Below, piece after piece: positions 1 through 64,000 of a stretch of DNA of 64,000 nt. Where the stretch lies: NCBI GenBank assembly GCA_025093555.1, contig JAIWNF010000029.1, positions 186,001-250,000 on the forward strand, read 5' to 3'. The DNA comes from Circinella umbellata (Eukaryota > Mucoromycota > Mucoromycetes > Mucorales > Lichtheimiaceae). The notes beneath the pieces are model-generated. The model had not been told where the DNA came from, made no database searches, and saw only the letters and a program-made list of their open reading frames with translations. Each line of letters starts with the position of its first letter. The stretch's first letter is position 1. The translations under genes were made by a program, and so were the position numbers.

Positions 1-551
1 GCTGCTGCAGCTGCCACTGCTGCCAATGTCGTTGCAGAAGAAGTAGGTGCTGTTGAATTAGAGGATGCTCGTTTCTTCATTCTATCACTAAATCTTTTTC
101 TTTCCCGCTGACGTTGTTGTCGAATTTCATTTTCTTTTACTGATTTTTCTAAATGATGTTGCATTACTTGCCTTTTATTTAGCCACCAAAATAACATACG
201 GTATTTTAATGGTAATGCAAGGGCAATGATTTCTTCCACCAAGTAGGTTTCTTCACATTCAGGAACAGGACAGTCAACAAAAACCAATTCAGTGATACCT
301 TCGTTATTTGCCTGTTTTATGGCTGATAGAGTATATTTTTCTAAACAAGGCTGACATATATAATGATTACATTTATCTGGAGCACATAAAATAGGATTTA
401 TGTTTGGTGGTGGTTCTGTTGCTGTTATATCGCCATCATTGTTATCGTTGTTATTATTGGTAATTGGACGTGATGTCGCATCGTAATAATCCTCAAAACA
501 AATAGTACAACGAATAGTTGTTTGATATTTTTTAACTACCTTAATAACCAT
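1..551 (-). CDS. RING-finger protein, 5' part (runs off left edge)
   Basis: Seen: an open frame from an ATG at 551 down to base 1 with no stop, about 183 codons. Cysteines and histidine fit a C3HC4 RING: C15-x2-C18, C61-x-H63-x2-C66-x2-C69, then C94-x4-C99. A hydrophilic, Asn/Asp-rich insert lies between the first and second pairs. After the RING come a Trp-rich helix (FWWLN near 124-128), a strongly charged Glu/Arg/Lys stretch and an Ala/Ser/Thr-rich tail that is cut by the window. Known: such rings, especially the C-x4-C last pair, occur in RING1 of RBR-type ubiquitin ligases. Inference: a ubiquitin-ligase-like protein. The IBR and RING2 parts, if present, lie outside the window. No introns are seen in this part. 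The RING call is firm; the RBR class is not. Confidence 0.75.
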   Translation of the reverse strand, partial: MVIKVVKKYQTTIRCTICFEDYYDATSRPITNNNNDNNDGDITATEPPPNINPILCAPDKCNHYICQPCLEKYTLSAIKQANNEGITELVFVDCPVPECEETYLVEEIIALALPLKYRMLFWWLNKRQVMQHHLEKSVKENEIRQQRQRERKRFSDRMKKRASSNSTAPTSSATTLAAVAAAA

Positions 552-1529
552 GAATAACTAAATATTCTTATACGAAAGGGGTTTATAAGTGGAAAAGCAA
601 GAAAAAAAAAGATAGTGATCAAATAATATAGATTTAAGAGACAGTTAAATGAGGGTTTTTTATACTAAAGAAACACTTGTTATTGACGCGTAGTCATGCA
701 AATAATAACTTAATACTGTTAATAGGTATACTAAAGCATAAAAAAATGTATATCGTCGTTTGGCTACGCATATTTTTTTCTTACTATACCTGAAAAGTCT
801 AATGTTACTTCTACTACTTGATGCTACGCCTCAATTTTTGTGATCAAATAATTTTTTTTCTCTAGGTATGTAGAAAAAAACTTTATTTTGCATTATTTCA
901 ATACTTAAAACCAACAATTAGATTTTATATTGTAATAGTACTTGTTAATTATTGATGGTCGTACAACCATTATAGCAAAAAAAAAAAAAAGATTACACAA
1001 AAGTCAACGACCACATCATCAGTGTATTGTAAATAATGACGAGTAAAAACTAGGTACTAAATTTGTAAAAATAAAACTTAAGGTTTTCAAATGTAATTTT
1101 TGATTCAAGATGCTTAATAAAATGTAAAAGAATGCTTCAGGTAATGAAAAAATATTATTACATAAGATCAAGAACGCAGTACTCGGAAAATAATAAGCTA
1201 CATTTTCGGCGGGTAAAACGATGTCAACTATTACAAGTACAAACATATATGAATTTATTCATATTTTTTAACAATGTTTATAATAGTAAATGTGTCAAAA
1301 AGAAAAGAAAAAAGTTGATGAGAATATCTTTTTGTTCTGGTTCTTTAAAGAAAGATCAAAACATTCATATTTCGTGTGTAACACTATAAAAGTTCTCTGA
1401 CCAGATCAATAGCTAATACATTCTTAAACTCACATAGAGCATTAGTTCTTAGCAAAACTTTTCAATAACAATTTATTGTTAATTGGCACAGCCTACTTTT
1501 TGTATACCCATACATAGTATATTTTCCAT
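552..1529. other. AT-rich intergenic DNA, no gene seen
   Basis: Short open frames at 1019-1246 (minus) and 1132-1389 (plus) have no recognisable domain and a composition typical of AT-rich non-coding DNA. No RNA gene or repeat structure was seen. Confidence 0.5.
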
Positions 1530-1813
1530 TTTAGAAGTTAAAATATTATTTGCTTCTTTGCGTAGCCAATGTTATTTTACTTTATTTTGCTGTTTTTCTT
1601 GCTACGCGAAGTTTTTTACCTAAAATAAAAACATACGTTCATTTTTTTTTCTGGTTTATTAATAGCGGTTTATAATTGAGATAGGTAATAAATAAGAGGA
1701 AAAAAAACAAGTATTAATTAATTTTTAGTGTGCCCGGAATAATAATGTCATTACTGTATTTATATTATTTTTATGGTGACTTTCGTAAAAAATAATGAAA
1801 AAATAGATATACT
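1530..1813 (+). repeat. Orphan 3' flank of a B-type subtilase copy
   Basis: This stretch aligns, with clear divergence, to the DNA just downstream of subtilase B' (about 24299-24606) and, inverted, to 16771-17078. The best-matching block is TCTGGTTTATTAA at about 1651, which is TCTGGTTTATTAA at about 24417, followed by similar GAGATA and GTGT...AATGTCAT blocks. It joins region X of IR1 at 1814, as the B flank joins IR1 at 16770/16771. No subtilase coding sequence remains to its left. Inference: a remnant of a further B-type gene copy whose coding part was lost. Confidence 0.6.
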
Positions 1814-2541
1814 TATACAATAGTTAATTAATATCTGCGAAAAAATAAAACTGTAGACGGCTGTCTGTCTCTATTTGAAGCTCGACGACATATTATTTTA
1901 TGAATCGTTTTGGAGAAAAAATATCTGTTTTTAATGTAGTAATCATATCTTTTAATAATATTACTTATGATATACGTATCTTAAACCTTTCAGTAAAAGT
2001 AAAAATTATACGTAATCTTTACAACAACTTAATACAAATGGGTGGTAAGCTTTTTATAATTTTGTGTTTTGTAGTAGAAGATTCAAGATATAATTTCACT
2101 GTCTGTGGTTCTCTACTTACAATGAAGATTGTTTCGTGGTAAATTTATTCTTCTACATTCTGTACATAAACATTGTAATAACAAATATGGTAGCAGATAA
2201 ATATATTAAATTACTATTATTATTATTATAAACACAATGGTATGAATATAAATACGTAAAAAGTTATGTGTGGGCAAAAGGAAGGGGCCAACAGAAATAT
2301 TAAACTAAAATATAAAAAATAAGTGAGAAAAATGGATAGATTTCAATTGTGGTTTTCGCTGTGAATGTGTGTCTAAATTCGTATCTGAACATGCTGCACA
2401 TGTTTGTGGGAGTGCGTTATGTAATTAATGATTTAGAAAGAAGACTGTTACATTATATCGTTATATCGTTATATCGTTATATCATTATTGTTATTATTCA
2501 ATTATCTTTCCTCATAACCATTTAAATGATGCAGTTGACGG

Positions 2542-2757: not shown

Positions 2758-3350
2758 TTTAAGCAGTTCAATACATAAGAAACTTAATTGATCACTTCGT
2801 AATTATACTGTAGCAATAAAAAAATATTCACAGTTTATAAAAAAAAGAGTATTAATCACGGGTTGATTCATGGTTGATTATCATGGTTGACAATTTACTT
2901 TATAATTTTTAGTGTTGGTGGTATTGATAATCTACATATAATACTTATATTTATGCTTTTACTACGTAAATTAATTTTGTTATGTACCTAGTATACAGAT
3001 GTTTGTCTTTTATTTGACAAGAGTACCTTTTCGGTTTTATTCTGTTTCCACAGACTATTGTTTCATCTTTATTAAAAGCGAAAAATAACACAATTCATCA
3101 GTATATAAATTCTACTTTTAATGCACTGGCGCAAAGCTTTGCTAAGAGCTTTTAGATAGCCTCCCACGGTGTGTGAATTACTACAATTGTACATTAGAAA
3201 ATAAAATAAAGGGAAATTATATCATCTAATCAAAACCGGAGAGATGGAAAGATATTAGATTGAAAAGTCTTTTTTTGCACGCTCTCAATACTGTTTCACA
3301 TAAGAACGTATTGCTTGTCATATACAGAGACACTTGTATATATCTATCTA

Positions 3351-3689
3351 CAGTCAACCCCCGTTTTTGCACCTCCCGTTTGTGCAAATCTCCCGGTTCT
3401 GCACCATTCGTTTTTGGAAATGTTAAAAATACTTAATAGAATCGCAACTTGCAACTTGCAACTTGCATCAAGGTTTTTGGGCGAGTTGCGCTAATCGGGA
3501 GTAAGCCATACTATAATTTTATATTTGTGTATATTATTCTTATGAATCTTTATCCAAATATGGAAATACCCAAAATGCTAGCAAAGAATAATTGATGAGA
3601 TGCTGTATTTTAATATATATCAAGTTTTGTTTATTGCAAGTCTTTGGTTCTGCAACAAAAATTAGGAAATCTCAGGTGGGGGTTGACTG
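3351..3689. mobile_element. MITE with CAGTCAACCCCC ends, TA target (pogo/Tc1-like)
   Basis: 339-bp element with perfect 12-bp terminal inverted repeats CAGTCAACCCCC / GGGGGTTGACTG, flanked by TA on both sides. The left end carries three imperfect repeats of CCCGTTTTTGCAC type, and near 3440 there is a run of CTTGCAA repeats. It has no coding capacity. TA target duplication and CAGT ends are typical of non-autonomous Tc1/mariner-pogo elements. It is duplicated within IR1 (copy at 14896-15234). Confidence 0.8.
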
Positions 3690-4572
3690 TATGTAAGTAT
3701 TAAAGCAATAGACGTAGGACGCTATTTATTTGATATATTATTAACAAATTCATCCTTTTGTTATTTATTACGTAGAAAGATTGAAAAATATGAGGATATT
3801 AAAAGAAATTCCTCTTGCTGTATAAATACCTTTAACAGACTGTGACGTACCCTTGGCGACCAAGCAGGACGCAACGAATGTCATTATCATGATTATAGTT
3901 TCAAGACTAGTTCAATTACAAAGCGTTTTAATGCTCAAATTAATTTATATCATGATATTTTTAATCTGTTCTTGTCATTGTAAATATAATATCCTCAAAA
4001 GAAGCGTTTCCTTTCCTTTTCGACATGTAATTCGAACGTTAAAAACAAAAATCAACATACGACGTATAAAGAAAAAAATCACTATTATGCATACAAAAAT
4101 TAGGAAGTTAGTTTAAAAATAGTTCAGTAAATGCAAAGACTAACTCTCTGCTGAAGCTGAACAAATCTATATTTGTAGAGAACACCACTGCTAATTAAAA
4201 CACTCACCAATTTGCTGAAATTGATTACTTTTACAAAAATACTAGGCTGTCAATTTCCAATCTGAAATTACAACATTAAAGAAGAACCAAACATCTAACT
4301 TTGAATTATTAAAAAAGAGAGCAGCTTAGTAGTTCCTAGATTATGATCAATTAATCAAAGAACATCATACGTTATTGAAAAAGTAAAAATATATGTAACA
4401 ATAAAATATAATATTATAATGTACGTAGTATTACATAGAGAGGTAGAGTGCAGCTAAAAGTTCTGATATGAATAATAAATTATAAGCAGGAATAGTGACT
4501 TGGCTGAAGAATGGCTGAGTGGATAGGTTTAAATATGGGGGGAGGGGAAGAGAACATAGTATACTTCTAACT

Positions 4573-6223
4573 TTACAGTTCAGTTTTCTTTTGACCGTTG
4601 AAAAGAAGCTTGTTGGGTGTAGCGGAATCGGGAATGGCTCCAATCTTGTTATTGGTAGTAATCTTGAGAACTGCGTTGTAAAGATTACTGGGTGAAATTC
4701 CTTGCTCCAAACCAGGAAGCAACAAAGCAGCGACACCAGCTACATGGGGGGAAGCCATGGATGTGCCAGACATAGATGTTATAGCACTTACTCCGCCAAT
4801 GTATGTGCTAGTAATAGCTCTGCCAGGAGCTAAAACATCAACACAGCGACCGTAGCAACTGAAATCGTCCATTGTGTCTTGCTTATTAACGGAACCCACG
4901 GTTAGAACATTTGCGTTATTGGCAGGAATCTGTTGGCATGCATCAGATGCAGAATTACCAGCAGCAACGACAATAGGAATACCGGCTTGCACAGCAGCTG
5001 TAATAGCGTTGTTCAATGTAGCTGCGCCAGAGCTGGAGCTAGGTGCACCAAGGGACATGTTAACGACGACAGGGCGATTCTTACCCTTCTCTTGGTTGAC
5101 GACATATTCAATACCACTAATCACATTGGAGAGAGAACCAGAACCTTCGCTTGAGAGAACTTTAACACTGACAATGTTGACCTTCTTTGCAACACCATAT
5201 TTGCTGCCACCAATGATACCACTAACGTGAGTTCCGTGGCCCCCACCTTCAAGTGGATCTTGGCTACCGTATGCAGAATAACCATGTTTAGCACGACCTC
5301 CGAAATCTTGATGGTTGACGTTACAGCCATCATCAACAACATATACTGTGACACCAGAGCTAAAAATATGTGATAGAAAATTGGTTATTTAAAAATCAAA
5401 ATCATTTTTTCTAATGATGTATAAAATTCAGACAGAAGAAAGAACATACCCGCCACGTGAATCGTAAATGTAGGGTTGAGTCAAAGCAGATTCGCGCTGC
5501 GAAATACGTGCCAAATTCCATTCAGCACCTGCTTGTTCAAGATATGAATCTGCACGCTTGGATTTCTATAGTTTTATACGTATTTTTGAGGAAGGTAAGT
5601 ATATTTTATTCATTGTCAACAATAGAAATAATAAAAAAATTTTGTTATATTTACAGTGCTTTCAGGATCAGGCTTGGGCAAGTCAAATTGAATGATCTCA
5701 TCGGGAACAATTGTAACAACTTCAGAGAAACCCTTCAAGATTCTTTCCACAATACGATTATCTGCAAGTGAGACACCAAGAGCTTTGAAGTTACCAGCGA
5801 CATCAAACGATTTAAGTACTCGGATGTTGCTGTTACCCATTGGATCATTAGCTTGACTGTCCACACCCTCGAACTTTTCGCCTAATTCTTCGAAAAGATC
5901 ACCGAATAATTTGGTGGTGTCGCTGATAAACTTGGGAATAACTATAAATTTATATATAATGATCGCATGGTATTTCGATTGTTTGTTTGCGTGTTTAATA
6001 TAAGAATAAATATTTGATAGTTAATGCAACCGGTTACTATTTTTGCACGTAGTAACGAATTATTCATTTTTTTATTTCTTTGTGGATTCTTACAGTCATC
6101 AACAGCGGCATCTTTATTCAATTGAATGATATAGTTTTGAGTTTTACGCTGTCCAGTTGGAGCAGCAGATGTAACGGTGCCCAGCACCAATACTGCAAAA
6201 CACGAAAGGGATATGAATTTCAT
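4573..6223 (-). CDS. Secreted subtilisin-like serine protease, copy A
   Basis: Four exons, complement of 6094-6223, 5655-5941, 5450-5565 and 4573-5359, give 439 residues. The start is the ATG at 6223, which opens a signal peptide (MKFISLSCFAVLVLG...SAAP). Next come an I9-type propeptide (YIIQLN to about residue 130) and an S8A proteinase-K-type catalytic domain. The triad is visible: Asp in VYVVDDG, His in GGHGTHVSG, Ser in SGTSMASPHVAG. The oxyanion Asn lies in VVAAGNSAS. The frame is intact and all splice sites are GT-AG. Known: S8A enzymes are broad endopeptidases secreted for protein digestion. It is identical to A' and about 85-90% similar to B/B'. It is divergent to A' across the IR1 centre, with a TATAAAA box 106 bp upstream of the ATG. 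Function is confident; the substrate is unknown. Confidence 0.93.
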
Positions 6224-6335: not shown

Positions 6336-6796
6336 CCAATTTTTAATTCCTTAATAATCCGTTTTTTGTATTCATTTTGCTTTGTGTTGTCAGGCTACAG
6401 TAATAGAAAAAGAGGATTGTTTTCTAGTAATAAAAAAAGAAATAAATTTCAAAAAAGGATAAAGAAGCCGGTAAAAGTAATATGTATAATTTGTAAAAGA
6501 GTAATACTATATAATTGTCAAGTCATCTATGCTACGTGCGTTTTATTCCGCGATCTTCTCATAACAATAATAATAAATGCATGGAGATAAAGAGTCTCGA
6601 TCGATACAACACAGAACATTACGATCAACCTGAATGCAGACATCTTGTACTTTGTTGCTCATATCTATTAGAGGGACTCACGTGAATTATTTACATTTGT
6701 ACGAGTTATCGGATTATCGTCTCACAAATAAACAAATTGAGCGGGCGCTCATCCTTTGTGAGAAAGTAATATATAGTATATGTAACTTTTAATCAC

Positions 6797-7589: not shown

Positions 7590-8035
7590 ATACAACTTCA
7601 ATTCAATTTATAAAGGAGACACAAAGTCCAGGGTTTTTTTTTATTCTATTTTCGGTTGCATAAATATTTTTTTGTGTATTGTTACGTCCCATTCGCATGA
7701 TATTTAATAAAATCAAAAAAGAAATCTAAGGAAGTCCGAATAAAAGACTCAAGAAATTACACAAAGTATCACTTCAATTCAATTTATACATACATGAGAC
7801 GCAAAGTCCGAGGTTTTATTTTTATTTTTATTCTTGGTTGCATAATTTGTTTTTGTGTATTGTTACGTATGTCCCGTTCGCTTCGTATGATATTCAATAA
7901 AATAAAATAAGAAATATAAGAAATTCCTAATAAAAGACTCAAGGAATAAAAGAGTTATATCGGTAACTTAATAAAACGATCTTATTGCATATGAAATTGA
8001 ATCCGCTCCCAAGTAATGCCGAATTTCATTAGACA
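7590..8035. repeat. TGTTACGTCCC repeat (LTR-like), partly duplicated in tandem
   Basis: Two imperfect tandem units about 178 bp apart share ACTTCAATTCAATTTATA, CAAAGTCC..GG, TGTTACGT and AAGACTCAAG blocks. The same dispersed sequence recurs in the IR2 spacer (about 20182-20580) and at 56750-57167. A TG start and a length of a few hundred bp fit a solo LTR, but no clear CA end or target duplication was found. Confidence 0.5.
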
Positions 8036-16770: not shown

Positions 16771-19700
16771 TAATTTGACTTGTAATAAGTGATATACTTT
16801 TAATAATTGTCTTTATTTTATGACACGTAACCAACCTAAAAATGAAATAAAATAAAATCATGACATTACTATTTTTGTACACTAAGCTTAATCACATAAG
16901 ATTCAATTTTTCTTTACTACCATTTGGTATCTCGATTATAAGCTGTTGTTAATAAACCAGAAGCAAAAGTAAAATAATAAATAAAAGACACATATTTTGT
17001 TTTTATTAAAACACTTTGCGCAGCAAGAAATATAACATAAAGTAATATTGAGAAAAGAAAAATAATGAACTTCTATCTTTACTGCTCAGTTTTCTTTTGA
17101 CCGTTGAAAAGAAGACTGTTGGGTGTAGCGGCATCGGGGATGGCACCAATCTTGTTCTTGGTAGTAATTGCGAGGACTGCGTTATAAACGTCGGTGGGAG
17201 CGACACCTTGACCCAAACCAGGAAGCAACAAAGCAGCGACACCAGCTACATGGGGAGAAGCCATGGATGTACCAGACATAGTTGTTATAGCACTCGTTCC
17301 ACCAATGTATGTACTGGTAATATCTCTACCAGGAGCTAAAACATCAACACATTGACCGTAGCAACTGAAATCATCCATTGTGTCTTGCTTATTAACGGAA
17401 CCCACGGTTATAACATATCTGTTATTAGCAGGAACCTGTTGGCATGCATCAGATCCAGCATTACCAGCGGCAACGACCATAGGAATACCGGCTTGCACAG
17501 CAGCTGCGATCGCGTTGTTCAATGTATCCGCGCCAGAGGTAGAGCTAGGTGCACCAAGTGACATATTGACGACAACAGGACGATTCTTGCCCCGCTCTTG
17601 GTTGGCGACATATTCAATACCACCGATCACATCTGAGAGAGAGCCTGAACCTTTAGCTGTAAGGACTTTAACACTGACAATGTTGACGTTCTTTGCAACA
17701 CCATATTTGCTGCCACCAATGATACCACTAACGTGAGTTCCGTGGCCCCCACCTTCAAGTGGATCTTGGTTACCGTATGCAGAATAACCATGTTTAGCAC
17801 GACCTCCGAAATCTTGATGGTTAACGTTACAGCCATCATCAACAACATATACTGTGACACCAGAGCTAAAAATATGTAATAAAAAATTGGTTATTTAAAA
17901 ATCAAAATCATTTTTTTTAATCATGTATAAAGTTCAGACAGAAGAAAGAACATACCCGCCACGTGAATCGTAAATGTAGGGTTCAGTCAAAGCAAATTCG
18001 CGGTGGGAAATACGTGCCAAATTCCACTCAGCACCTGCTTGTTCAAGATATGAATCTGCACGCTTGGATTTCTATGATTTTATATTGTTTACAAAGGTAA
18101 GTATTTTTCATTGATTGTCATTCATAGCAAGAGATAAATAATCCTTTTTATATTTACGTACAGTGCTTTGCGGATCAGGCTTGGGCAAGTCAAATTGAAT
18201 GACTTCATTAGGAACAATAGTAACAACTTCAGAGAAACGCTTCAAGATTCTTTCCACAATACGATTATCTGCAAGTGATACATCAAGAGCTTTGAAGTTA
18301 CCAGCGACATCAAACGATTTAATTACTCGAACGTTGCTGTTACCCATTGGATCATTAGATTGACTGTCCACGCCCTCGAACTTTTCGCCTAATTCTTCGA
18401 AAAGGTCACCGAATAATTTTGTGGTACTGTTAATGAACTTGGGAATAACTATATATTTGATAGATAATAATGGCATAATATTTGGATTGTTTAGTTACGT
18501 GTTTAGTATATGTATGAATGCAATTTTTAATAGTTAACCCTACTAGTTACTATTTTTGTAATTTTTTTTTTCATTTTTCCATGTTCTTACAGTCATCAAC
18601 AGCGGAATCTTTATTCAATTGAATGATATAGTTTTGAGTTTTACGCTGTCCAGTTGGAGCAGCAGATGTTATGGTGCCCAGCACCAATACTGCGAAACAG
18701 GAAAGGGATGTAAATTTCATTTTGAATAAAAAAGCTCTACAAGAACAATTGTAATAATGTAGTGAAAGGAAGGGGTTGTTATGGTTGAAAAATGTAAGAT
18801 GAGAGGGAAAGAGAGAGAAAACAAGTGTGATTTTATATCAATTTTTACTTGCTTCGAAAATTGACTTTCTCTATTCATTTTGCTTTGTGTTGTCAGACTA
18901 CAGAACTAGAATAAGTGGATTGTTTTCTAGTAATACGTAAAAAAAGGAATAAATTTCAAAAATGGATAAAGAGGCCGATAAAAGTAATATAGTTCATAAA
19001 AGAGTAATAATATAAAATTGTTACGCCATCTATGCTACGTATGTACATTTTATCCTGCAATCTTCTCATAGCAATAATAATAAATACATTAAGATAAAGA
19101 GTCTCGATTCATACAACATAGAACATCATGATAGACCTAAGCGCAGACATTCTGTACTTTGTTGCTCAAATCGATAGAGGGACTCACGTGAACTATTTGA
19201 ATTTGTACAGGTTATCGGATTATCGTCGCACAAATAAACAAAATTTAGCGGGAACGTTATAAATATTTACCACGCGCTCATCCTTTGTAAGAAATTGATA
19301 TAAATGTAAATTGTTTTGATTTCTAGTTACAAGCCTAAATCTAGTTCCACTAGATTTAGTCTCTTTTTTGGTCTTTAATTTTGATAATCTAATAAAAAAC
19401 ACGGATGACATAAAAAAATAGAAACCGGGCTTATTTTATAACACTTGTACGCAAAACTTAAGGGAATATCCATTTACTTTTTCCAGCTTAAATTTCCATT
19501 TAACATTGCCGTGTCTGCCACCATGATTTTTTCTACCTTTGTGTTGAAGATCCCGGTCGGGACTTACGAGCAAGCAATAATAGTAGGAACAGCAAGTGTA
19601 AAAAAAACAGAACAATTTTTATTATGCAATTCTTTTTTTTATTACAAGTGTCGTCATCTTTCTTTGTTGCTGTTGCTTCTAAAGTAGAGACTATGTAGAT

Positions 19701-34193: not shown

Positions 34194-34234
<41 letters not shown>

Positions 34235-34430: not shown

Positions 34431-34721
34431 TTTTTTTTCTGGATTTTCTCTCCTTTTTTTCCCCTTCTATTTATTTAATTTTAAAATAGTTGAATTATAA
34501 ATGTATTCAATGAACAATAAAAAAGAAAAAGAAAGAAAGAGAAAAGTATATGTGGGAAAGAAGGGAAATAAAGGTAAATCAAAACAAAGGTTCCGAAAAA
34601 AAAAAAAAAAAGAGCGCGAATTTTTAATTGTATGCGTTACTCCAAAACTTATCAGCATAAAATTATTCTTTATTCTTCTTTTCTCCTTTTCTTAAAAAAA
34701 ATACATTACTCTTTATAAGCA

Positions 34722-35245
34722 ATGGTTCACTATTTTTATCAAAGCGAACAAAAAGAAGACTCAATTAAATGGTATATTGATTGTGAATGGAATAATAATC
34801 TTGACTTTGAGTCAAATCCAATGGATCTTGATATATGTACTATTACTCTAAATAATGTAAACGATTATTGGACCAGTATAGGTATATATATGTAGATTAA
34901 CCTCGTCCCTCACCTCATATATACTTCATTCTATATTTATTGACCTTTAATAAATAATACTAATACTAATATATGAATAGTAACACGTAAAGATCTTGAC
35001 AACTTTATGAATCCCAATGCCATCTTAAACAAGTTAAATCAAGTTGTCACCAAAGGTTTACAAGGAGAAACAGACTTTGAAGGTCAAGAACTATCTTGGA
35101 AAATAAATCAAGAAAAGAATAAATGTGAAGTAAGTTTATTATTATTATTGTTGTCAATATCATATATAATTAACATATATTATATTTTTTTAGATGTCAT
35201 TAATTGGATATATGGCTGGTTCATTACCTGTAAGTTCTTTATTAT

Positions 35246-35286
<41 letters not shown>

Positions 35287-36579
35287 TAACTTGAAATTAT
35301 ATTAGTATCAATTAGGTTCAATTCATGTTACTAAAGTAACCTCATTGTCTGAAAAACAAAAAGTAATGGAAAATTGGATGGAGAATACAACAAAACAATA
35401 TCAAATTGATAAGGTAATACTTTTTGTTTTGTTGTCAATTAAAAATAATAATGATAATAATAATAATCATGACCATTTTGTTTGTTTATTTAGCAAACAA
35501 GAAATGCTCTTTCGGCACGAAATAAAGATCTTGAATTAAATAGGAAACAAATGGAAAAAGAATTAGAAAATTTAACTCAAGAAAAAGTAGAATCAGATAT
35601 GATGGTTATAGAAAAGGTAAATTTATTTTCTTTAAAAAAAACATAGTGTTTTAATTAAGGCTAATTTATAAAAAAAAAAGATGAAACAATTGATAAATAG
35701 TAAAAAAAGACGAGTTCATAAAGTAATGATGGAACGCAATCAATTATGTAAGTAAAAATAATAAAATTCATGCAATAATGTCCGCTTTAGAACTTATTCT
35801 TTTTCTTCATTAATTCTCAGTGAAACAAGTTGAGGCACAACAAGCATTGGATAATAATAATAAACAAGAACAATCGATACCATCATCATCATTACCACAA
35901 ACTATACCAAAAAAACGAGGACGACCTACTTCCTCTTCATCCTCAATTAAAAATGAAAATACTCAAGTGAAAAGGTAAGAGTAAGGGGAATGTAAATATT
36001 CTTATTCTATATACTCATACAAACATATAAATATATATAAATAAAAGGACACGAACCAACCCTACTGTATCAACACGAAAACAAAAAAAGCAAAAACTAA
36101 TAAAAGAAGAAGAAGAAGATGAGGACGATGATGTTGACGGGGAGGAAGGAGAAAATGAAAACAAATCTAAAAACGCCAAACAATACAATCTTCGACGACA
36201 AAAATCTATTCAAAGCAGTGGAGACGAAACGGATGATGGTAATAACCCTATTATTGCTTCGAATCCTATTACTACTTCGAATTCTTCGAATACAGTGAAT
36301 ACAACAACTGAAACAAGAAAAGTCAAATTTAAAGATATTAAATCATCATCTGATGATAATGACGATTCGGATGATATGTTTGCAGGAGTCGTTCCGAAAT
36401 TACGGCGAAGAATTAATTCAAGTCAAAGGTGGAGTATTAATTTAATTAAATTTATTATTATTATCAAGAGGATCAAATTATTTCATAAAAGCTAACGTGA
36501 ATGGATGAATCTATGTAGCTCAAAAAGTAAAGGAAAACGGATTGCACGAAATGCATCTGATGAAAGTGATACCGATTGA
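34722..36579 (+). CDS. XRCC4: XRCC4-like non-homologous end-joining factor
   Basis: Nine exons: 34722-34881, 34981-35129, 35194-35229, 35306-35413, 35494-35616, 35681-35747, 35821-35974, 36048-36428 and 36519-36579. All are GT-AG, the phases close, and the protein has 412 residues. The N-terminal part has the head-domain layout: a short Trp-containing strand (IKWYIDCEWNN), TITLNNVNDYWTS, a helix with LNKLNQVV, LSWKINQEKNKCEMSLIGYM, and YQLGSIHVTKV matching the XRCC4 F-R-LGS-x-x-x-x-KV strand. A long coiled coil follows (about residues 130-220) with KKRRVHKVMMERNQL at its end. The tail is acidic/basic and contains an AT-hook-like PKKRGRPTS. Known: XRCC4 dimers hold DNA ligase IV in double-strand break repair. 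XLF or PAXX kinship is less likely, because the coiled coil is straight and long. Confidence 0.72.
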
Positions 36580-36817
36580 TGTTGTATAATATATATAAAA
36601 GAAGAACCAACTTCTTTTGTTCCAATTCTTTTCTTTTGAGAAATACGTCGCGTCTTTTTTTTTCCCGAATATACCCCACCGAACTAAAATTGAATAACAG
36701 ACAGAAACTTTTTTTTTTTGTTGGGTGATACAATTCCTTTGTTTTATTATTTCTCCCCTTCTTTTCTTTTCTTTTCTTTGCTTCTCTTTCTTTTCTATAA
36801 TACCTTATATAACAACT

Positions 36818-37378
36818 ATGTTCCGCACTACCAACTTATTACAACGTGTAGCCACAACAACAACAACACGTGGTTTCCATAGCAGCACTACTCAATTTAT
36901 CAAAAAAGGCGATTATCTTCCTAGTGTTGTAGTTCAACGCAAGTCCCCTGCTGATACAGTAGACGTCCAAGAATTATTTGGTAGCGTTAATAAGGCCATT
37001 TTATTTGGTGTTCCTGGTGCTTTTACTCCTGGTTGCTCCAAAACTCATTTACCCGGCTATATTCAACGTGCTGAAGAATTAAAAACTGAAAAAGGAGTTG
37101 ACTTAATTGCTTGTGTTTCAGTCAATGACGCGTTTGTCATGAGTGCTTGGGCTGATGCTACTCATGCTGATTCAAAAGTAGAACTTTTGGCTGATAGTAA
37201 AGGTGAATTGGCTAAAGCGATGGATTTGGATTTTGATGCTACAGGTGCTTTGGGAGGTCATCGTTTCAAACGTTTTGCTGCTATTCTTGAACATGGTGTT
37301 GTTAAGGAACTTTTTGTTGAACAAGATAAAACTGGATTGAATGTTAGTTTGGTTGAAAACGTTGAAAAACATTTGTAA
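36818..37378 (+). CDS. Peroxiredoxin, PRX5/PMP20 type, mitochondrial
   Basis: A single-exon gene of 186 residues. The start at 36818 gives MFRTTNLLQRVATTTTTRGFHSS, an Arg/Ser/Thr-rich mitochondrial targeting sequence; the open frame upstream (to 36725) is hydrophobic leader DNA and is not used here. Domain marks: PGAFTPGCSKTHLPGY with the peroxidatic Cys73 and Thr70, the VNDAFVMSAW block, and GGHRFKRFAAILEHGVV with the conserved Arg. Cys99 is the only other cysteine; no C-terminal resolving cysteine is present, as in fungal PMP20/Ahp1-like enzymes. Role: reduction of hydrogen and alkyl peroxides. It lies 238 bp downstream of the XRCC4-like gene. Confidence 0.9.
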   Translation: MFRTTNLLQRVATTTTTRGFHSSTTQFIKKGDYLPSVVVQRKSPADTVDVQELFGSVNKAILFGVPGAFTPGCSKTHLPGYIQRAEELKTEKGVDLIACVSVNDAFVMSAWADATHADSKVELLADSKGELAKAMDLDFDATGALGGHRFKRFAAILEHGVVKELFVEQDKTGLNVSLVENVEKHL

Positions 37379-38967
37379 AATAAACGCTTCTTTTTTATTT
37401 TTGTAATGATATATATTGCAGTAATTTGGTTACGGTGTATTAAGTAATAATTTACTATTATGTTTATGCGTAAAAATTCTGTTGAGAAAGTACGTAATTA
37501 CGTTTGATATGTTAATGTCTTCTTTATATTTATGGTTCAAATGAAAACAGTAGTTTTTACTTAGCTTCAACGTCAGGTTTGACATGTTTTTGTTTGAGAC
37601 AGTTCCCAATTGGTTATACAAAGATTACCCTCAGGGGTAACAGGGAAAATATGATTCGAGAAGGAATAAGATACTTGTTAAAGAATATATGAAGCTCAGT
37701 GGCGTTTGATTGTTGTTACGGTATATATGAACTACATAGACATATCGCATGTTTTTTTGTTTAATATACCTACTGTACAACTGGTCAAGAAGCTACTATC
37801 ACGTAAAAAGTTGTTATTTATTCAACCTCCATAAAAATTAAAGCGGTATAGTTTTAATTTTGCGGTATGTGATCCAATGAAAAGGTGTTGAATGCACTCC
37901 CTGGTTCGTTTGAAAGATGAATATAAACCATTACTCAGTAAACTCTACTATAATCTATTCATCTCATACTTCAGCATCATCCATATGTATCTATGTTATA
38001 TTTCATATTCATTAAGAATATACCTATAAATATAAATGATAATGTATTATATTAGTGTTCCTATAGATGGATATAACACTCAATATGTTTAATTTATAAA
38101 GTGTTATAATCCTTGTGAATAGCTAAAGTCGTTACATTCGCATCATTCATTTACTTGAAGGTAGAGTGATTATGCATGATTATTTTCTTTTTAAAAAAAC
38201 AATTTAGAGAGGATGATAATTTAGTGAAAAATATAGTGCTTATGAAATAATTTTATTCCTTCAGAATAAATTTCTTTATAATGATATACCAAGCATAAGG
38301 TAAAAGAAAAATATTAAAGTTATTATGGTAATGTTAAATATAACTTTGATTTATTATCTTATTCCATCTCATTTACACTGTTACTATTTCTTCTTTCCTC
38401 AATCTATCTTTTTTTAACAATTGTTAAATTCTGTAATAATCCGTTTGTATCTTTCTTTCATTTTTTTAAATAGAAATGGTACTCTTCAATCGCTTGAAAG
38501 TGTTGTAGATTCTACTTTGTTTTGTAAACCGTGGTGACTAAAAGAAGTTTCTTCCCAATTGTCCATTTTTTTTATTATCTGGAAAATCTCTCTTCTGTTA
38601 TCACACCTCCTAGAACTAAGGTTCGTGCGTTACTGTTTCTGTAAAACCACCAAAGATCAAAAGAATCCTATTTTGAAGATGCAGAAGTTGATATAAATGG
38701 TTTATTTTTCTTTTTTAATATACTAAAAAGGTAATGCTAATTGACCTTTTCATTATTATAAAATAAAAAGTATAGTAGCGATTTTACACCCAAAATCCCA
38801 TGCTCTTTCCATATATGGTTATTTTATGCAGCTCGTGCACAGCAGTTGTGAGGTTACTCATTGTGATTAAAATTTACGGTAAATGACTATACCTCTAAAC
38901 TGTAAGACTTTCATATAGTTTATTGTCTTTAACTGATCTTTTATTTTTAAATTTTTTTCATATGTAA
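37379..38967. other. AT-rich intergenic DNA, no gene seen
   Basis: No frame with recognisable content. Parts near 38500-38880 may be worn upstream exons of the kinase remnant that follows, but no kinase motif could be read there. Confidence 0.5.
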
Positions 38968-40949: not shown

Positions 40950-41179
40950 AATTCGGTACGTATGTTTTCAAAGACACCATTGATTATTTATATTTACGTA
41001 TACGGGGAGAAGAGATGATTTAATTTTTAAACAGTTGGAATTGAATAACTGATAACACACCTTCTTTTCTTTTCTTTTCTTTGTGATTATATAGCTTACC
41101 ATTTCATTTGCTTATTATTTCCTTCTTTCTTGCTTAAAACACATATATTTATATCCATCACTTATTGCTATTACCTCTA

Positions 41180-45317: not shown

Positions 45318-45319
45318 CT

Positions 45320-48300
45320 ATTGATGAAGGCATACAAACAAAGGCAGTTTTTATTTATTGTATTGTCTTGATAAATATAAACGTAGCATCAAGCAAAGAA
45401 AAGTGAATATTTTAAATGAAATGTTATTACTATTATAATAAAAAATAAGAGTACACTTGTTAATACGTAAGTTACTACATAGCTGGTAAAATCCATAATC
45501 ATTATTTGCTTTATACTGAATGAGAATCTTCTTACCTTGATTGATTTTTTGTTTAAAATGCAACGACTTATCTGTCTTTTGTTTGTTTGTTTACGTGGAC
45601 TTAAGTTACTGTTTAAACAGTTAATTTTTGGTGGTGATAATTACTTTATCAATCCATCATAAATAAATTCTCGAGTCATTAAAATTAAACACTTACGCAA
45701 TTGTTAATTATAAAAGAAACGGAACAGAATAATAATATGACCTTGGCACGAGTACAAATTGAGGTTTACGATGCTTACGATATATATGTACTTATAGATG
45801 ATTTGACCAACTTTTAAAGCTTTATGGTCTTTTCATCAAATACTCTTAATACGTACAGATAATGATGATTTACTATAATAAGTGAGATCAAACAGAACGC
45901 GGGTATCTAAGTTTGGACGCCATTATTTTTGGCGTTATGGTAATGTTACGTACCACGTAAAAAAAACGTGTTACCTAACAAAGTAAATAAAACTGTTGTG
46001 CAGAAATAATTGTCATGACGATCGAACGTAGTAACAACCCAATTTTCTTTGACAATGCTTCAAGAGATCTAATCGTATTTTTTTTTTCTTGGGCGGATAC
46101 GTAAAAATTCTTTTCATTTTTATGTCCAGTGAACGTTATTTTTTTTAAATAATTCTCACTTGATATCATTGATACCAATGTTAATAAGGATAAAATTAGT
46201 ATGTCTTTGTAAATATATAAGAAAACAAGAAAGGATCATCATTGTAAAAAACAAAAGTTGGAATATCCTGTCTCTCCATTTTTTTTTTATCATTACGTAC
46301 ATCTAGATTTCCCTCGGGACTAATGAAAAAAATATCATTTGCATAGCAAATTACAAATTGAATTTTATATCTATTATATGTATAATATGTATACATGGTA
46401 ACAAAAATGAATATGAAGAGGAATAAAAAATGTCATCTCGCTGTTTGTTCATATCTTTCAAACAGAACTTATGTACAATTCAAATTTTACAGTTCATTGT
46501 AGTTACTCTTTTGCATATATTATTGCTATGGTAATTATTGATTAAATTCTTCACTTTAATCAATTTTGCATACATTGTTTTATATAAAATACATATTACT
46601 ACGTATTCTTATTATATAGCAACGACAGTACATTTTTGAAGTAATAAAAAAAGACAATTTATTTATAATAAAATACATCTCATAAAAAACTATTGATAAT
46701 AATAAAGATTGCAATGCTCTTGGCCGCAACTTTTGTTTTTTTTTAAAAAAGAAAAAAAGCTACGTTGACAGGTCACTACCACGTGGAGGTGACATTGCAT
46801 CAGGACCCAATCTCCCCAGTGGCTAACCTGGATCATCGACCCCTTTACTATCCGAAGATAGTAAAGAGTTGTTTTATGACAGATGTGGAAGTCTTGCTGC
46901 CAAAAGCCATTGTCGTTGCCATACTCCACTAATTGTAAAACAAATAATGGAATATATATGTCAGTCGAGTGACAATGAAACCAAAAGCTACTTCAAAACT
47001 TTTACAATCTGAAATAATATACTTTTACATGCTACCCCAAGGAAACTTTGTTTTTGAACAATCTTTTGTTTGTAATCATTCAAAACTACTCCCAGCTTCT
47101 TCGAAAAAGGAAGCAAGAAAAAAAGTTTCGCAACTGGATGATGAAAAACTACACGCGCAGCGCATAAGTTTATTTCACATCCATCACTTGGACAATACCA
47201 GCCCTGAAAAAAAGAAAAGTGTGCACACGCTAGGGAACTCTAGCCGTTTAAAGCATAGTATTCCGCCTGCACCACTCGGGGCATGATCTAAGCTTGGTGG
47301 GTAGACAGCGTGCCTATAAGTAAAAATAAACATGGCTAGATGTTGACGGACTATACGTGTATAGCGTATAGCTATTCGACATCCAGCACATCTATCACCA
47401 TGTAGTAAATGCACCATTTCGAAGAAGCAAGGAGTAAAGAAATGAAAAACGATTTTTTTTGAAAAACCAAAAATCCCCTTTTTTCAATATTTTTCGGATC
47501 GGAAATCGGAAATCGGAACGAAGATATCTTATCATTGATTAATTTGGGAATTGGACGCGGGACCATTTCCATTCTAGGCAACAGAACCATTTTTATTATC
47601 ACATGATACTATTGCTACCGATGATAAGAAGTTCATATTATATTATTGTTGAAGGATCAATGTGTTCGCTGTGGAAAAAACAACAAGTAGAATACTTTAA
47701 AGTAGTGGCATCTTACACCAAGAGAATATAAAAGAGTAATCCTTTATGCAGTACGTAACAAAAAACCTTTTTGTTTCTCTAATGTAGAATAAGTTCTTTT
47801 TTCTTCTTTCCTAAAATGTAATATTGATCGCCATATTAATGGGATTTACCCCAAGTCATTAACGCGTTTTTATACAATTCAAGATTGTTTTTTTTAACAA
47901 TGCAATTCGTTTTGGTGATTCGTGATTCTAATGAGTATCATTGCGTGGAATGGAATGATGTTTGACTTTTTAAGTCAGGACGTCTTTTTTTTTATCATCA
48001 TTGTTGTGACCTATTTATCACGAACTAAGTGTACCATAAAGGGTCAGCTACTTGGAAAATATATATTCAAGAGTACTGCTTCAGGTACGTAATTATGGTA
48101 TTCACATTGTTCGTCAAGTATCAAGCCATATATATTTCTAATATTTTTGTAAAATTTTAGATGCCCAACAAGATATACCAGTGAACGATGCAAGGAGCAT
48201 TTCAAGTGCAAGATTCTATGTCTCACCATTATGATCCATATCCCTAAGGCCTATGATGGAACCACCCGCTTGGGAGAAGCAGAGGCAGATAAAAACCTTG

Positions 48301-49286: not shown

Positions 49287-50230
49287 TGTCTGATGAGCGT
49301 GGATTCCGGTCTCGCACTCCTCCTACTCCGGCTACTTGGATGCAAGCAGGTTTGCAGAAAGCTGTAAGAAGAGCTAAAAATCTTGAAATCTATTAAAAAG
49401 AGTCATTGAGCCTGTGGGTCGTTCTCAACGCTCTCGCGTATCTGGTACTTCTATTTATCCTTCCATTCCCCTTGCGTCCCCCTGTAGCTGTTGTTACTCT
49501 ATTCCTGCCAGGGTGCTAGAGATGCTGCTGCTTTTTTTTCTTCTCCTAGTGGCGCTGGTGGTGTACCAGGTGGTACTCTCAGGGGTACTGTTGACGCTGA
49601 GTATTCTTGTTGTATTCGACACATACTATCCATAAAGATAATTGTTTGTCATTTTAGATATTATGCTTTGGTGACATTTTGTGTGTGTATTTCCTTATTA
49701 GGACTATGGTTTGTAAAAATGTAAAAGTCTGTCTTTTATAGTGAGAACAGTAACAGCTGTGTAGATATATCATATCGTCAACCGCACGAACTCTGACTTT
49801 AATATCATTATCTTATATTCATAATTCACACGTGATGACAAATATAAATCCCGCGTATACACGGATACACATATTTATATATCCTACGTACCGATAATAA
49901 GATTCATATAAATAGAGATTATATTTAATAAACTTCAGTTCAATTATTGTTCTTTTGGGACTCGTTGACTTTTTAATATCTCTTTTATTTTATTCAATTT
50001 TGATTGATATAACAGTTCTACTAGTCTTCTGCTGGTTGTGTTGTTCGTCGTGGTGACTTTGATGATAACGATGTTGATGGTGGTAGTAGTAATGTGGTCA
50101 TGTAGGTGTTAGTAATGACTCTTCTGCTCCTGGTGCTCGTAATGTTGGTAGTAGTGGTGGTGCTGCCAGTAATAGTGGTGTTAGAGGCGAGAAGATGGAG
50201 GATGAATATGTGAAAATGGAGGTCAATTGA
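49287..50230 (+). pseudogene. Fragments of an unidentified Ser/Gly-rich ORF
   Basis: A short frame MSDERGFRSRTPPTPATWMQ ends in TAA after 37 codons. It is followed in another frame by RVIEPVGRSQRSRVSGTSIY, a Gly/Ala/Ser-rich stretch (about 49490-49620), and, after a gap, SSAPGARNVGSSGGAASNSG at 50120-50190. This looks like one low-complexity protein broken by stops, perhaps ORF1 of a transposon. The family was not recognised. Confidence 0.35.
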
Positions 50231-54524: not shown

Positions 54525-56571
54525 AATGAGGCTATTATATGAAAAAGAAAAACCGATAGAATTATTTACAGTATAATACGGCACAATGATGTCCATGTGA
54601 CATGCGTTCCTTTATATAGAAATTACACAATCAAATCATTTTGAGAATCATTCTTTTAAATAACATCAAGGTTGATTTTGACATGGGTTAAAAATATGTT
54701 ATGAGAAAGAGTTTTTTTAATAAATATATACAGGATGACTTGACGATAAGAATAAGCACAGCAAAGGGATAGGAATAGCAAAGAGATAGGAACAGCAAAG
54801 AGATAGAAATAGTAAAAGGAAGAATAAAATAGCAAAGGGAATAATAATACGTAGCAAAGAGATAGGGATAGCAAAGGAAGAATAAAAATAGCAAAGGAAA
54901 GAATAATAAGTAATGGGTATAAATATATGTGTTTTAAGCAAGAAAGAAGGAAATAATAAGCAAATGAAATGGTAAGCTATATAATCACAAAGAAAAGAAA
55001 AGAAAAAAAGGTGTGTTATCAGTTATTCAATTCCAACTGTTTAAAAACTAAATCATCTCTTCTCCCCGTATACGTAAATATAAATAATCAATGGTATCTT
55101 TGAAAACATACGTACCGAATTTTAATTGATTTGAATGTGTTGGATTGCAAGAAAATTGTTTTTAATGAATTGATAAAGGTGTTGCCTTTTTTCATCTGTT
55201 CCTTGGAAGTTATTAATGCAAAAAGTACGAAGAGTTCTATTTTTGGGATATGCTGATAAGTCTGGAATATTATCATAATCCAGAGCTCTTTCAATTATTA
55301 AAGTTTCAATTTTTTTGCTATTACGTATGCAAATTACGCAATATATTCGGAAACCTGTCTTTTGCTAATTGTGCTCGAATACTCATGGTTTTTAAACAGC
55401 TGCTACCACAAATAAGGATGATATTGGAAATATCGCGAGAAGAACGAAAGAAAACTAATATAAAAAATGAAAATGTTATATGTTATATGTTTGTTAATAT
55501 ATTATTATTAACTTTTACTTGAGTATAAAATGTTATAAAAATACATATACGTATATACCTCCATGGTAAGATCGTGTGTTATTATAATCCATATCAATAA
55601 TATCATCAACATGATACATAAAAAACAAAAAGGAAAAAGAAAATGATACCGGTCTATTCAACCGGTTTGCCATCGAAATTTCAGTTGATATTTTTTCACG
55701 CATCACTCGATGTTTGTTGCCTGTACAGTTGGAAATAAGTAGATTTTGCGCAAGTTTATATGAAATACTTGGCAAAGTCTATTTAATTAAAATACGTCTC
55801 CATGATGGACCGATCCAGTAATAAAATAAAAAGGTTTTAAATGTTGTAATTTCAAGACGCATGAATATGTTGATGACAACTTCAACAGGAAGGGCTTGAG
55901 TAATGTCGCGTGGTGTTGGGTTCAATTTTTATATAGATATACGTAAAAAAAAGAAGTAAAAGTGGGATGAAAAGTATAAAGAAGAAAGTAATTTCCAAAG
56001 TAATTTTTTCTTTCTTTATAAATGTCAATCGGAATAAAACACAGAATATGTTTTTTAACATACGTAATACTTATATAAAAAGTGATTGAATGTTTTGTTT
56101 ATATTATACAATGATGTTATCATAATGACAAGAGATGGATTATTTGTTTTGCATGTAAAAAAATAAACGTCATAATTTGTTTATTGACATCATCTAATGA
56201 TCCACATACTTTTTGTAATGGATTATTCTATGCAATATTTTCCCCCCTCCCACTTTTAAGGTACTGTTTATTACACGTGCCTAAAATAATTATCATACAG
56301 TATTACTACATATTTATACTAGAAGGGATATAATATTGAGCTTTTTTTATGCTTTTCTTTGAATAATGGGAAACTTGCACCACTTTGGCTCTTCGGTGCA
56401 TGATTTCCCCTTGAATAATGAATCCGTGACGTTGTCACACATATTATCTGTTTTTTATTAACAAGAAAAATTGGTGGTTAACATATAAACTAACTCGTCC
56501 CTCTTTTTTTCTTATTACTGTACTTATGTCAATTTTTACCCACTTGTGGTTCTAAATAACGAAATAAAATA
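54525..56571. repeat. IR3 right arm
   Basis: Reverse complement of about 39496-41565. The outer edge is at TTTATTTCGTTATTT (inverted at 56555-56570). Inside, differences include a CGTA insertion at 55324-55327 in the F-box-like gene. An AGCAAAG-type minisatellite lies at 54735-54905. Confidence 0.85.
55122..55917 (-). pseudogene. F-box-like protein gene, broken (IR3 right copy)
   Basis: Same structure as the left copy: TPRDITQALPVEVVINIF, GPSWRRILIK, then the shared TAG; the frame continues to a donor at 55558, with the second exon from 55454. In exon 2 a CGTA insertion (TACGTA at 55322-55327, where the left copy has TA) shifts the frame. This copy is therefore doubly broken, while the left one has only the shared stop. 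Confidence 0.6.
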
Positions 56572-61995: not shown

Positions 61996-62392
61996 TTCTT
62001 TGTAAAATATAGTTCAAAATAAAAAATAAAAATAAAGGTAATAAAATAAAAAAAGAGGGGGAGAGTTAAAACGGGATTGGGTGAATAATGTAAAGATCCC
62101 CCGCAGATATGTATATATAGATATATATATAAAAGTCTTTGAAATATATAAATCTACCCTTATCTTTTTTTGATGACCACCTATTCTTATTTTTGCATAA
62201 TATTACATGCCTTATTTATACAAAGTATTTATTTACACAAAGAATAAAACTATTTTATATGTGTTCATTATTCCCAAAAGGCGAATGTTAGCATTTAAAA
62301 AAAGTTACTCCGCAAATGAGAAGTGTTTCTCCAGGTTTTTTTTTTTTTTGGAGGGTACCGGTTTTATTTAACTTAATAACTTTTTCATATAT

Positions 62393-63310
62393 ATGCGATT
62401 TTATGAATCGCCTCGATTTAAAACAACGTAAAAGATGTTTATTTTATTATTATTATTTCAAAGATAAATAATGGTAACAATTCATTATATTTATTAATGT
62501 ATTACAAATAGATTGAGCGAGCAGGAATGCACGAACGAGCTTGCTGATATTCTTAATAATAATACATCACCCAAAGTAGCTCGTTTACTTCAAGGCATTT
62601 TTACTCTTAATCCTCGAGCACTTAAAAGAGGTATTACTTGTCGACCATGTCATGGAACTGAACAACAAGTAAATAAATTTATATGTTTATATATAATATC
62701 ACTATTATTATTGTTATTAATGGCAAAGAACTATCTCAATATATTTCTGTTTTTTATAAAATAGTCAAGAATGGGTTATTATGATGGAAGATATCAACGG
62801 TTAGTTAAAAAAAAAAGTCATTCACTATTCAATATTAACTTGTAGATGAAAATGAATTAATGAAATATAATAAAGGATTGTATTATGTTGTGACAATATT
62901 CGATCCAAACAACAATTAGAGGAAACACTTATTCATGAACTTGTACATGCGTTTGATGCAACACGTACAGGAAAATTTACAAGTATGTGTCATCTTGTTG
63001 CATGTGGTGAAATACGAGCATCTGCTATTGGTAAAAAAAATGTTATATTTTTCCACGCGTCTCTTTTTCCAAGTAGTGTTATTATTAACCACCTTCACCC
63101 ATAATACAATTATTAGGACAATGTCATGATATTAAATCTGAATCCAAAAAACGAGCTTGTATATGGGATGATGCAGTTCGATCCACAGCTGTTCATTGTG
63201 GTGGCACAGATCTTGCTATGATTTTTGTTCAACAAGTATTTGATAATTGTTTTAAGGATACTGCACCTTTTACTCAACCAACGACTACATCATCCTCTTC
63301 ATCATCTTAA
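62393..63310 (+). CDS. ATP23: Mitochondrial inner membrane metalloprotease ATP23
   Basis: Five exons: 62393-62427, 62512-62668, 62765-62799, 62876-63030 and 63117-63310, giving 191 residues. The first exon (MRFYESPRFKTT) is the least certain; it was chosen because its donor gives the right phase. Motifs in order: ITCRPCHGTE, GYYDGRYQRIVLCCDNIRS, ETLIHELVHAFDATR with the zinc site HELVH, ACGEIRASAIGQC, KKRACIWDDAVRSTAVH, and a Ser-rich tail. These match the ATP23 family (M76) along its whole length. Known: ATP23 matures Atp6 and helps ATP synthase assembly in the intermembrane space; many cysteines suit oxidative folding there. It is convergent with the racemase gene, 105 bp apart. Confidence 0.9.
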
Positions 63311-63415
63311 AATCATCATATAAAATTTGTAATAATAGTATACATAGAACGAAATAATTTATATATAATAATACAACAATCATATACTATAAATCTGATA
63401 TATATGTATATTTAT

Positions 63416-64000
63416 TTACAATTTGGAAATTCCCACTGTATCAATAAAAGTACCCTTATTCAATAATTCACGAATCTTGGATTGAGGTACACCAAATTGA
63501 CTGAGAACTTCCATGGTGTGTGTACCAGGTTGTAAAAATGGATCATCATTACTATCTTGTTTTCTTGGATCATCATAATTGACTTGTTTAGCAGGTGTAC
63601 GAGATAAAATGGGAGCAGGTTGAGGTGGGGATGCTTTACGTGGCCATTGTTTTTCAGGTTCAGTTACCATGGATACATTAGGTATTTCTTCTCTGAATGA
63701 CAAGACAGGAGCAACACATGCATCGGTACCATCAAATTTTTCAGTCCATACAGCTTGTGTTTTAGTAGCAAATACATTGGCAAAGATTTCCTTCATTTTC
63801 GGCCAGGCATCACGATCATGTTGTTCAGGAAGATCTTTTGGATTTAATTCTAATCCTTTCAAAAATTGAGCATAAAATTGTGGTTCAATAGCACCACTAT
63901 GGGATAAAATAAAAATAAAAGTTAGATGGATAACAAGAATGATACTACACATATATAAGAGAATGACTATTGTTTGTTTTACTTACACAGACATGTAGCG
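63416..64000 (-). CDS. Alpha-methylacyl-CoA racemase family (CoA-transferase III), 3' part
   Basis: Runs off the right edge. Exons are complement of 63989-64000 and 63416-63896, joined over a GTAAGT intron to read YMSVGAIEPQFYAQFLKGL. Next come DRDAWPKMKEIFANVFATKT with the FDGTDACVAPVLS block, and a C-terminal PFLQPGTHTMEVLSQFGVP followed by an INxL-type end (GISKL). GAIEPQFY, the D-C-AP motif and the closing helix are characteristic of the C-terminal half of AMACR-type enzymes. Known: they epimerise 2-methylacyl-CoAs in peroxisomes or mitochondria. The terminal SKL is a canonical PTS1 signal, so peroxisomal import is likely. Confidence 0.88.

What the first reader, a model, noticed from the sequence alone, without database searches (positions are those of the whole stretch)
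1..64000. TACGTA is abundant outside genes and behaves like a CGTA footprint at TA
By eye there are on the order of 90 TACGTA sites, several times what AT-rich composition would give. There are none from about 30505 to 37490, the block of intact genes. Paralogue pairs differ by exactly CGTA at a TA: 23217-23222 against 12932; 13003-13008 against 23293; 18934-18939 against 6431; 7433-7438 against 19978; and 55322-55327 against 40747. TA-CG-TA has the form of a Tc1/mariner-type excision scar (target TA duplicated plus 2 bp of element end). This suggests massive past activity of an element family with CG termini, or an unknown insertion process.
Basis: partly seen in the sequence, partly recalled or inferred. 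Interest (0 to 1): 0.85.

Follow-up and report, generated by a model that had tools for sequence, protein, structure and literature searches.

The report
Four-base insertion scars at TA
In this mould's genome the six letters TACGTA occur far more often than chance allows because four bases (CGTA) keep being added at TA sites in non-coding DNA, most likely as scars left when cut-and-paste jumping genes leave.

Summary
The window has 88 TACGTA against 14.5 (dinucleotide) or 22.4 (trinucleotide) expected, the most over-represented hexamer. The 50.8-Mb genome, probably Circinella (Mucorales), has 32,911.

Paralogues differ by exactly TA/TACGTA at 12-13 distinct loci and by TA/TACATA or TATGTA at about 4. 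Of eight loci read in three or more copies, seven are gains in one copy only; at the eighth three copies carry TACGTA and one lacks it. So CGTA is gained at TA.

Best reading: excision footprints of Tc1/mariner-type elements, which target TA. The genome has at least 164 DDE_3 transposase matches and near-identical MITE copies. "CG termini" found no support: ends were read in 9 of 11 families; 7 begin CA, 1 CT, 1 is unclear, none CG. I propose that each end keeps only its outermost C, giving TA-C-G-TA.

Not shown: any site occupied in one copy and scarred in another; nine unoccupied copies of one MITE host repeat look unscarred by position. A CG-ended family, or an insertion process without transposons, is not excluded.

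The parts
5577..5582 (.). TACGTA private to unit 1 (arm copy at 13003-13008); unit 2, C158 and C2 paralogues have TA
18155..18160 (.). TACGTA private to unit 2 (arm copy 23217-23222); unit 1 (5652), C158 and C2 have TA
18934..18939 (.). TACGTA private to unit 2 (arm copy 22438-22443); unit 1 (6431) and C2 have TA, C158 lacks the TA
19036..19041 (.). TACGTA private to unit 2 (arm copy 22336-22341); the other three copies lack four bases there (gap placement ambiguous)
6481..6486 (.). TATGTA private to unit 1 where the other three copies have TA; a canonical-type scar
55322..55327 (.). TACGTA only in this copy; window-left copy, L024 and L027 have TA
55548..55553 (.). TACGTA against TA in the window-left copy (40526); surroundings are AT-repeat rich
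40995..41000 (.). TACGTA here, at 55071-55076 and in L024; TA in L027. One event, carried by three of four copies
45464..45469 (.). TACGTA against TA in L025
45785..45790 (.). TATGTA against TA in L025
45947..45952 (.). TACGTA against TA in L025 (four flank mismatches)
46600..46605 (.). TACGTA against TA in L025 (four flank mismatches, gap placement ambiguous)
49885..49890 (.). TACGTA against TA in L025
41393..41398 (.). TATGTA against TA in the paralogous copy in the window
7864..7869 (.). TACGTA against TA between short tandem copies; the doubtful thirteenth locus
3349..3691 (.). 343-bp MITE flanked by TA with inverted ends CAGTCAACCCCC (arm copy 14894-15236); related copies at 34 or more other places
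30505..37490 (.). gene block without any TACGTA

Best explanation
TACGTA sites above chance are excision footprints. A Tc1/mariner-superfamily element or MITE inserts at a TA and duplicates it; when it leaves, the break is joined with two extra bases between the two TAs, so TA becomes TACGTA (+4 bp). Shown: CGTA is gained at TA in non-coding DNA, repeatedly, with 2 events per 48 mismatches in one paralogue pair and 5 (4 TACGTA, 1 TATGTA) per 323 in another. Inferred: the agents are elements whose outermost base is C (here mostly CA...TG). Cutting two bases inside the 5' ends leaves CA-3' on both flanks; these cannot pair (C opposite A). If the terminal A of each overhang is lost or repaired away and the opposite C is copied, the product is TA-C-G-TA. 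The canonical products TACATA and TATGTA are the minority. Coding exons are probably spared because +4 shifts the frame. The CA-to-CG repair step is the least certain part.
For: TACGTA excess in window, samples and genome, strongest below 32% GC (102 in 74.5 kb against 17.0 at order 1). 12-13 distinct TA/TACGTA loci and about 4 clean TA/TACATA-TATGTA loci; seven of eight multi-copy loci are single-copy gains. Size and site specificity: 14 non-simple TA-N2-TA rows, 0 TA-N3-TA. Re-hit sites: TACGTACGTA 1,211 against 105 for the reversed control and about 227 from a simple per-TA rate. Agents present: at least 164 DDE_3 and 31 DDE_1 matches; two pairs of full elements 98.4% and 99.8% identical; nine MITE copies 97-100% identical at six distinct sites; 4 occupied and 9 unoccupied copies of one host repeat, flank matches overlapping by two bases as for a TA duplication. 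Literature: 78% +4 footprint for Tc1 in C. elegans soma (quoted in a passage of PMC13148408); cuts two bases inside the 5' ends (PMC2170065); fungal Tc1 ends TACA/TGTA (PMC9977792).
Against: No site found occupied in one copy and scarred in another. The 9 unoccupied copies show no scar by position, and the one unoccupied paralogue of another MITE site that was read has none. CG outnumbers CA/TG about threefold, whereas CA ends would by recall give TACATA/TATGTA. TACAGTG, the end word of several families, is not in excess (4,628 against 5,313 control). Two TE families show no event (0 against 210 retained TA hexamers). The TACGTA excess is weaker but not absent in blocks above 32% GC (21 against 8.5).
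Confidence: 0.58

Rival explanations
1. The scars come from a Tc1/mariner or pogo-like family with CG ends (TA-CG...CG-TA). Its self-complementary CG overhangs would pair and give TACGTA as the single product; TACATA/TATGTA would be decayed TACGTA.
For: Explains the dominance of CG directly. Sclerotinia Tc1-mariner families are reported with ACGT as first four bases (passages of PMC4188875). Most of the 164 DDE_3 and 31 DDE_1 matches were not read.
Against: None of nine families with readable ends begins with CG. Only 3 weak CG-start TIR pairs in the sequence held, against 21 for CA, most of these real elements. CpG is little depleted (observed/expected 0.92 and 0.85), so fast decay of CG to CA/TG is not obvious.
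Confidence: 0.22
2. A TA-directed insertion process without any transposon adds CGTA, for example a nuclease cutting at TA followed by untemplated or templated addition during end joining.
For: No occupied/scarred pair was found; the excess (roughly 20,000 by extrapolation) is large beside the transposase matches; TE families at hand are spared.
Against: Fixed +4 at TA with two inner bases is what Tc1-type excision leaves, and CA/TG forms occur too. No enzyme with such a product is known to me (recall).
Confidence: 0.14
3. TACGTA is a selected motif (a bZIP/Yap-like site, by recall) or a compositional bias, and the TA alleles are deletions.
For: Non-coding positions and a palindromic ACGT core.
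Against: Seven of eight multi-copy loci are single-copy gains. Flanks carry no extended motif beyond somewhat more G at -1 (0.25 against 0.17); TTACGTAA is not above its reversed control (1,956 against 2,204). Orders 1-3 leave an excess in window and sample.
Confidence: 0.05

Closest known systems
Tc1 excision footprints (C. elegans)
   Same: TA target and a typical +4 bp scar (passage quoting Eide and Anderson 1988 in PMC13148408)
   Different: Footprint sequences TACATA/TATGTA there are from recall; here TACGTA dominates, and the sites number in the tens of thousands genome-wide
Fungal Tc1 elements with TACA/TGTA excision sites (Tc1-OP1, Tc1-MP1; PMC9977792 passages)
   Same: Terminal CA, TA flanks; a Circinella minor DDE domain is listed there among relatives
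   Different: No footprints are described in the passages seen ('footprint' 0 occurrences)
Sclerotinia Mariner_SS families with ACGT ends (PMC4188875 passages)
   Same: TA duplication; reported ACGT ends might give CG-type scars
   Different: No CG-start end among the nine families read here
Sleeping Beauty footprints
   Same: TA-flanked scar of end bases (PMC7827188, PMC2874221 passages)
   Different: Three-base overhangs and +5 scars; no TA-N3-TA polymorphism here

Membership tests
Tc1/mariner (2-base type) excision footprint | insertion at TA, TA kept on both sides, +4 bp | tested here: met
Tc1/mariner (2-base type) excision footprint | derived gain, not loss | tested here: met
   seven of eight multi-copy loci single-copy gains; one carried by three of four copies
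Tc1/mariner (2-base type) excision footprint | inner bases match the element's ends | tested here: inconclusive
   ends read are mostly CA; scars mostly CG, about a quarter CA/TG
Tc1/mariner (2-base type) excision footprint | transposase source and mobile copies in the genome | tested here: met
Tc1/mariner (2-base type) excision footprint | same site occupied in one copy and scarred in another | tested here: inconclusive
   looked for, none found
Tc1/mariner (2-base type) excision footprint | excision observed in cells | not testable with these tools
   needs an experiment
Sleeping Beauty-type (3-base) footprint | +5 bp TA-NNN-TA scars | tested here: not met
   0 non-simple rows, although the word TACAGTA is 1.9-fold above order 2
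CG-ended TA element | TIR pairs TACG...CGTA in several copies | tested here: not met
   3 weak pairs only, in the part of the genome held; most of the genome unread

The most novel reading that the evidence does not exclude
A TA-directed process that adds CGTA independently of transposon excision, or a transposase that makes scars far more often than it leaves copies, is a leading short-insertion mutator of this fungal lineage and has made roughly twenty thousand sites.
Probability: 0.14. Interest if true: 0.88.

Novelty: new variant of a known kind. Interest (0 to 1): 0.6.

Why it matters
If these are excision scars, the genome keeps a countable record of transposon departures that outnumbers the transposase matches seen, so that excision rate, target choice and break repair could be read from one assembly. 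The uniform TACGTA outcome would say something specific about how Mucorales join unpaired 3' overhangs. It is also a practical warning: promoter motif searches in such genomes could return TACGTA as a false regulatory motif. If excision is not the cause, an undescribed insertion process is at work.

Tried and rejected
Composition: orders 1-4 on the window, orders 1-3 on two sets; the excess persists at orders 1-3, order 4 absorbs much of it.

Yap/bZIP site: TTACGTAA not above its reversed control; flanks nearly flat.

Sleeping Beauty-type +5 scars: none among paralogues.

CG-ended elements: scans of the sequence held (the output was cut in the palindromic part) and 11 families: ends read in 9, no inverted ends found in L018 and L021. 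L017/L019 and L064 were read at one end only; L064 and the window MITE have similar ends and may be one broad family.

Occupied/scarred pairs: searches with 19.9 kb and 9.7 kb of window, 10 kb elsewhere, a MITE host repeat and joined flanks of three MITE sites; none found. One unoccupied paralogue of a MITE site was read and has no scar. Window 48552-49044 relative to L025 is an insertion with a TAA duplication, PIF/Harbinger-like by recall. A 1.58-kb insert in C147 relative to L009 (positions) does not break at a TA.

Rows dropped or merged: matches under 150 bp or 74% identity; simple repeats. One search listed 14 TACGTA rows; L024:3109, 40995 and 55071 are one event, 7864 is doubtful, and 5577, which missed the flank cut-off, is added, making 12-13. 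It listed 8 TACATA/TATGTA rows; four in poor alignment or beside another scar are set aside, leaving 4. 81 gave ten TACGTA rows (eight distinct). TA-N4-TA gave 12 non-simple rows, several of them repeat units. Pairs overlap, so some loci count more than once there.

Papers. Listings only: 20 of 1,028 shown; 12 of 37; none; 13 of 14; 12 of 196; 10 of 140. Passages seen: PMC7913693, PMC13148408, PMC4188875, PMC9977792, PMC3072357, PMC2874221, PMC2170065, PMC7827188. None of these describes TACGTA as a footprint in what I saw; the papers were not opened. Plasterk 1991 is not held.
Full report
The window lies at C133:186001-250000 of a 50.78-Mb, 210-contig assembly. A peroxiredoxin encoded at 36725-37378 is 99% identical (over 86% of the query) to a Circinella minor protein, so this is probably a Circinella-like Mucorales fungus; that rests on one protein.

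The observation. TACGTA occurs 88 times against 14.5, 22.4 and 29.8 expected at Markov orders 1, 2 and 3. Part of the count is doubled by two perfect inverted repeats (2991-8895/9690-15594 and 16771-19984/21393-24606). Without the second arms 78 sites remain, 6.2 and 4.0 times orders 1 and 2; seven 10-kb samples elsewhere give 3.5 and 2.6 times, with 1 to 12 sites each. Among TANNTA words TACGTA is the outlier at both orders; TATATA is also raised, as expected of AT repeats, and TACATA/TATGTA slightly (1.26-1.45 times order 1), rising to 1.9 times in blocks under 27% GC (51 against 27.3). Genome-wide there are 32,911. Scaling by the sample's order-2 ratio gives roughly 20,000 above expectation, an extrapolation. 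There is no site between 30499 and 37491.

Gain, not loss. Exact TA/TACGTA differences between paralogues occur at 12-13 distinct loci: 5577, 18155, 18934, 19036, 40995 (with 55071 and L024:3109), 45464, 45947, 46600, 49885, 55322, 55548, one in the C158 paralogue (L067, opposite window position about 6396), and a doubtful one at 7864. In the subtilase family four copies were read side by side. At 5577, 18155, 18934 and 19036, in L067, and for the TATGTA at 6481, one copy carries the four bases and the other copies that can be read do not; at 18934 the C158 copy has lost the TA, at L067 the C2 stretch does not reach, and at 19036 the gap can be placed in more than one way. At 55322 three other copies have TA. 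At the eighth multi-copy locus (40995/55071/L024) three copies carry TACGTA and the more divergent L027 has TA, which fits an older gain but does not prove it. By reading the ORFs, 5577 and 18155 fall in an intron and the other subtilase events upstream of the gene (inference).

Specificity. With a strict flank test the non-simple TA-NN-TA/TA rows number 14: ten TACGTA (eight distinct), three TACATA/TATGTA and one TAGATA at a MITE flank. TA-NNN-TA gives none; TA-N4-TA gives 12, several of them repeat units. Other dinucleotide cores with two bases between give 0 to 4 rows, some of which may be shifted readings of the same events. In non-TE paralogues 31 of 181 indels are 4 bp long (overlapping pairs included), in two TE families 1 of 71. 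TACGTACGTA, expected where a scar is hit again, occurs 1,211 times against 105 for the reversed control; a simple per-TA rate predicts about 227, so re-hitting is more frequent than that, by target preference, by clustering in non-coding DNA or by slippage.

Agents. The genome has at least 164 DDE_3 and 31 DDE_1 matches. Eleven families were looked at and ends were read in nine. CA: L012/L013, L014/L015, L016, L017/L019 (one end), L022, L064 (one end) and the window MITE 3349-3691. L020 begins with CT; L023 is unclear (TT). L018 and L021 showed no inverted ends. The L012 family has a MITE with nine copies at 97-100% identity, four of them in one host repeat. That repeat shows 4 occupied and 9 unoccupied copies whose flank matches overlap by exactly two bases (positions only, one further partial copy not classed). 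The window MITE has relatives at 34 or more other places (39 of 315 candidates scored).

Mechanism. A Tc1-type transposase cuts exactly at the 3' ends and two bases inside the 5' ends (ISY100, PMC2170065, abstract and passages). For CA...TG ends both flanks carry CA-3', which cannot pair. Keeping one strand gives TACATA or TATGTA; keeping only the outermost C from each side gives TACGTA. The rule would make every family with an outermost C, CA- or CT-ended, leave the same scar, which fits one scar from many families. It is an inference; no excision was observed. Rates: 2 events per 48 mismatches and 5 per 323.

What does not fit. No site was found occupied in one copy and scarred in another, and the unoccupied copies seen bear no scar. 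TACAGTG is not in excess (4,628 against 5,313). Two TE families show no event (0 against 210 retained). CG exceeds CA/TG about threefold. A CG-ended family remains possible because most transposase copies were not read, and Sclerotinia families are reported with ACGT ends (passages of PMC4188875).

Verdict. A real and directional insertion process, most simply Tc1/mariner excision scars with an unusual dominant outcome and unusual abundance: known in kind, and new in scale and scar sequence as far as the listings searched show.

Noticed in passing
42775-42976 against L026:1123-1322: A 200-bp segment is inverted in the paralogue on C137 while both flanks stay colinear.
   Followed up: no
2991-15594 and 16771-24606: Two perfect palindromes with arms of 5,905 and 3,214 bp and spacers of 794 and 1,408 bp, each carrying a subtilase gene copy in each arm; inverted pairs of equal-scoring transposase matches elsewhere suggest such palindromes are common here. 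Real or an assembly effect is open.
   Followed up: no
43216-44083: 868-bp repeat with copies at 90-97% identity at many places, ends CGGCACGG/CCGTGCCG; family not identified.
   Followed up: partly
53837-54501: 665-bp repeat with more than a dozen copies at 86-95% identity; family not identified.
   Followed up: partly
48552-49044: About 490-bp insertion absent from L025, with TAA duplication and ends GACCATCYGCA, PIF/Harbinger-like by recall.
   Followed up: partly
44889-45321 (approximate): Tc1-like degenerate MITE with ends TACAGGGTTTTTCC and TAGACAGGTTTTCTCC.
   Followed up: no
24774-25814: Open frame of 346 aa without a Pfam match; not identified.
   Followed up: no
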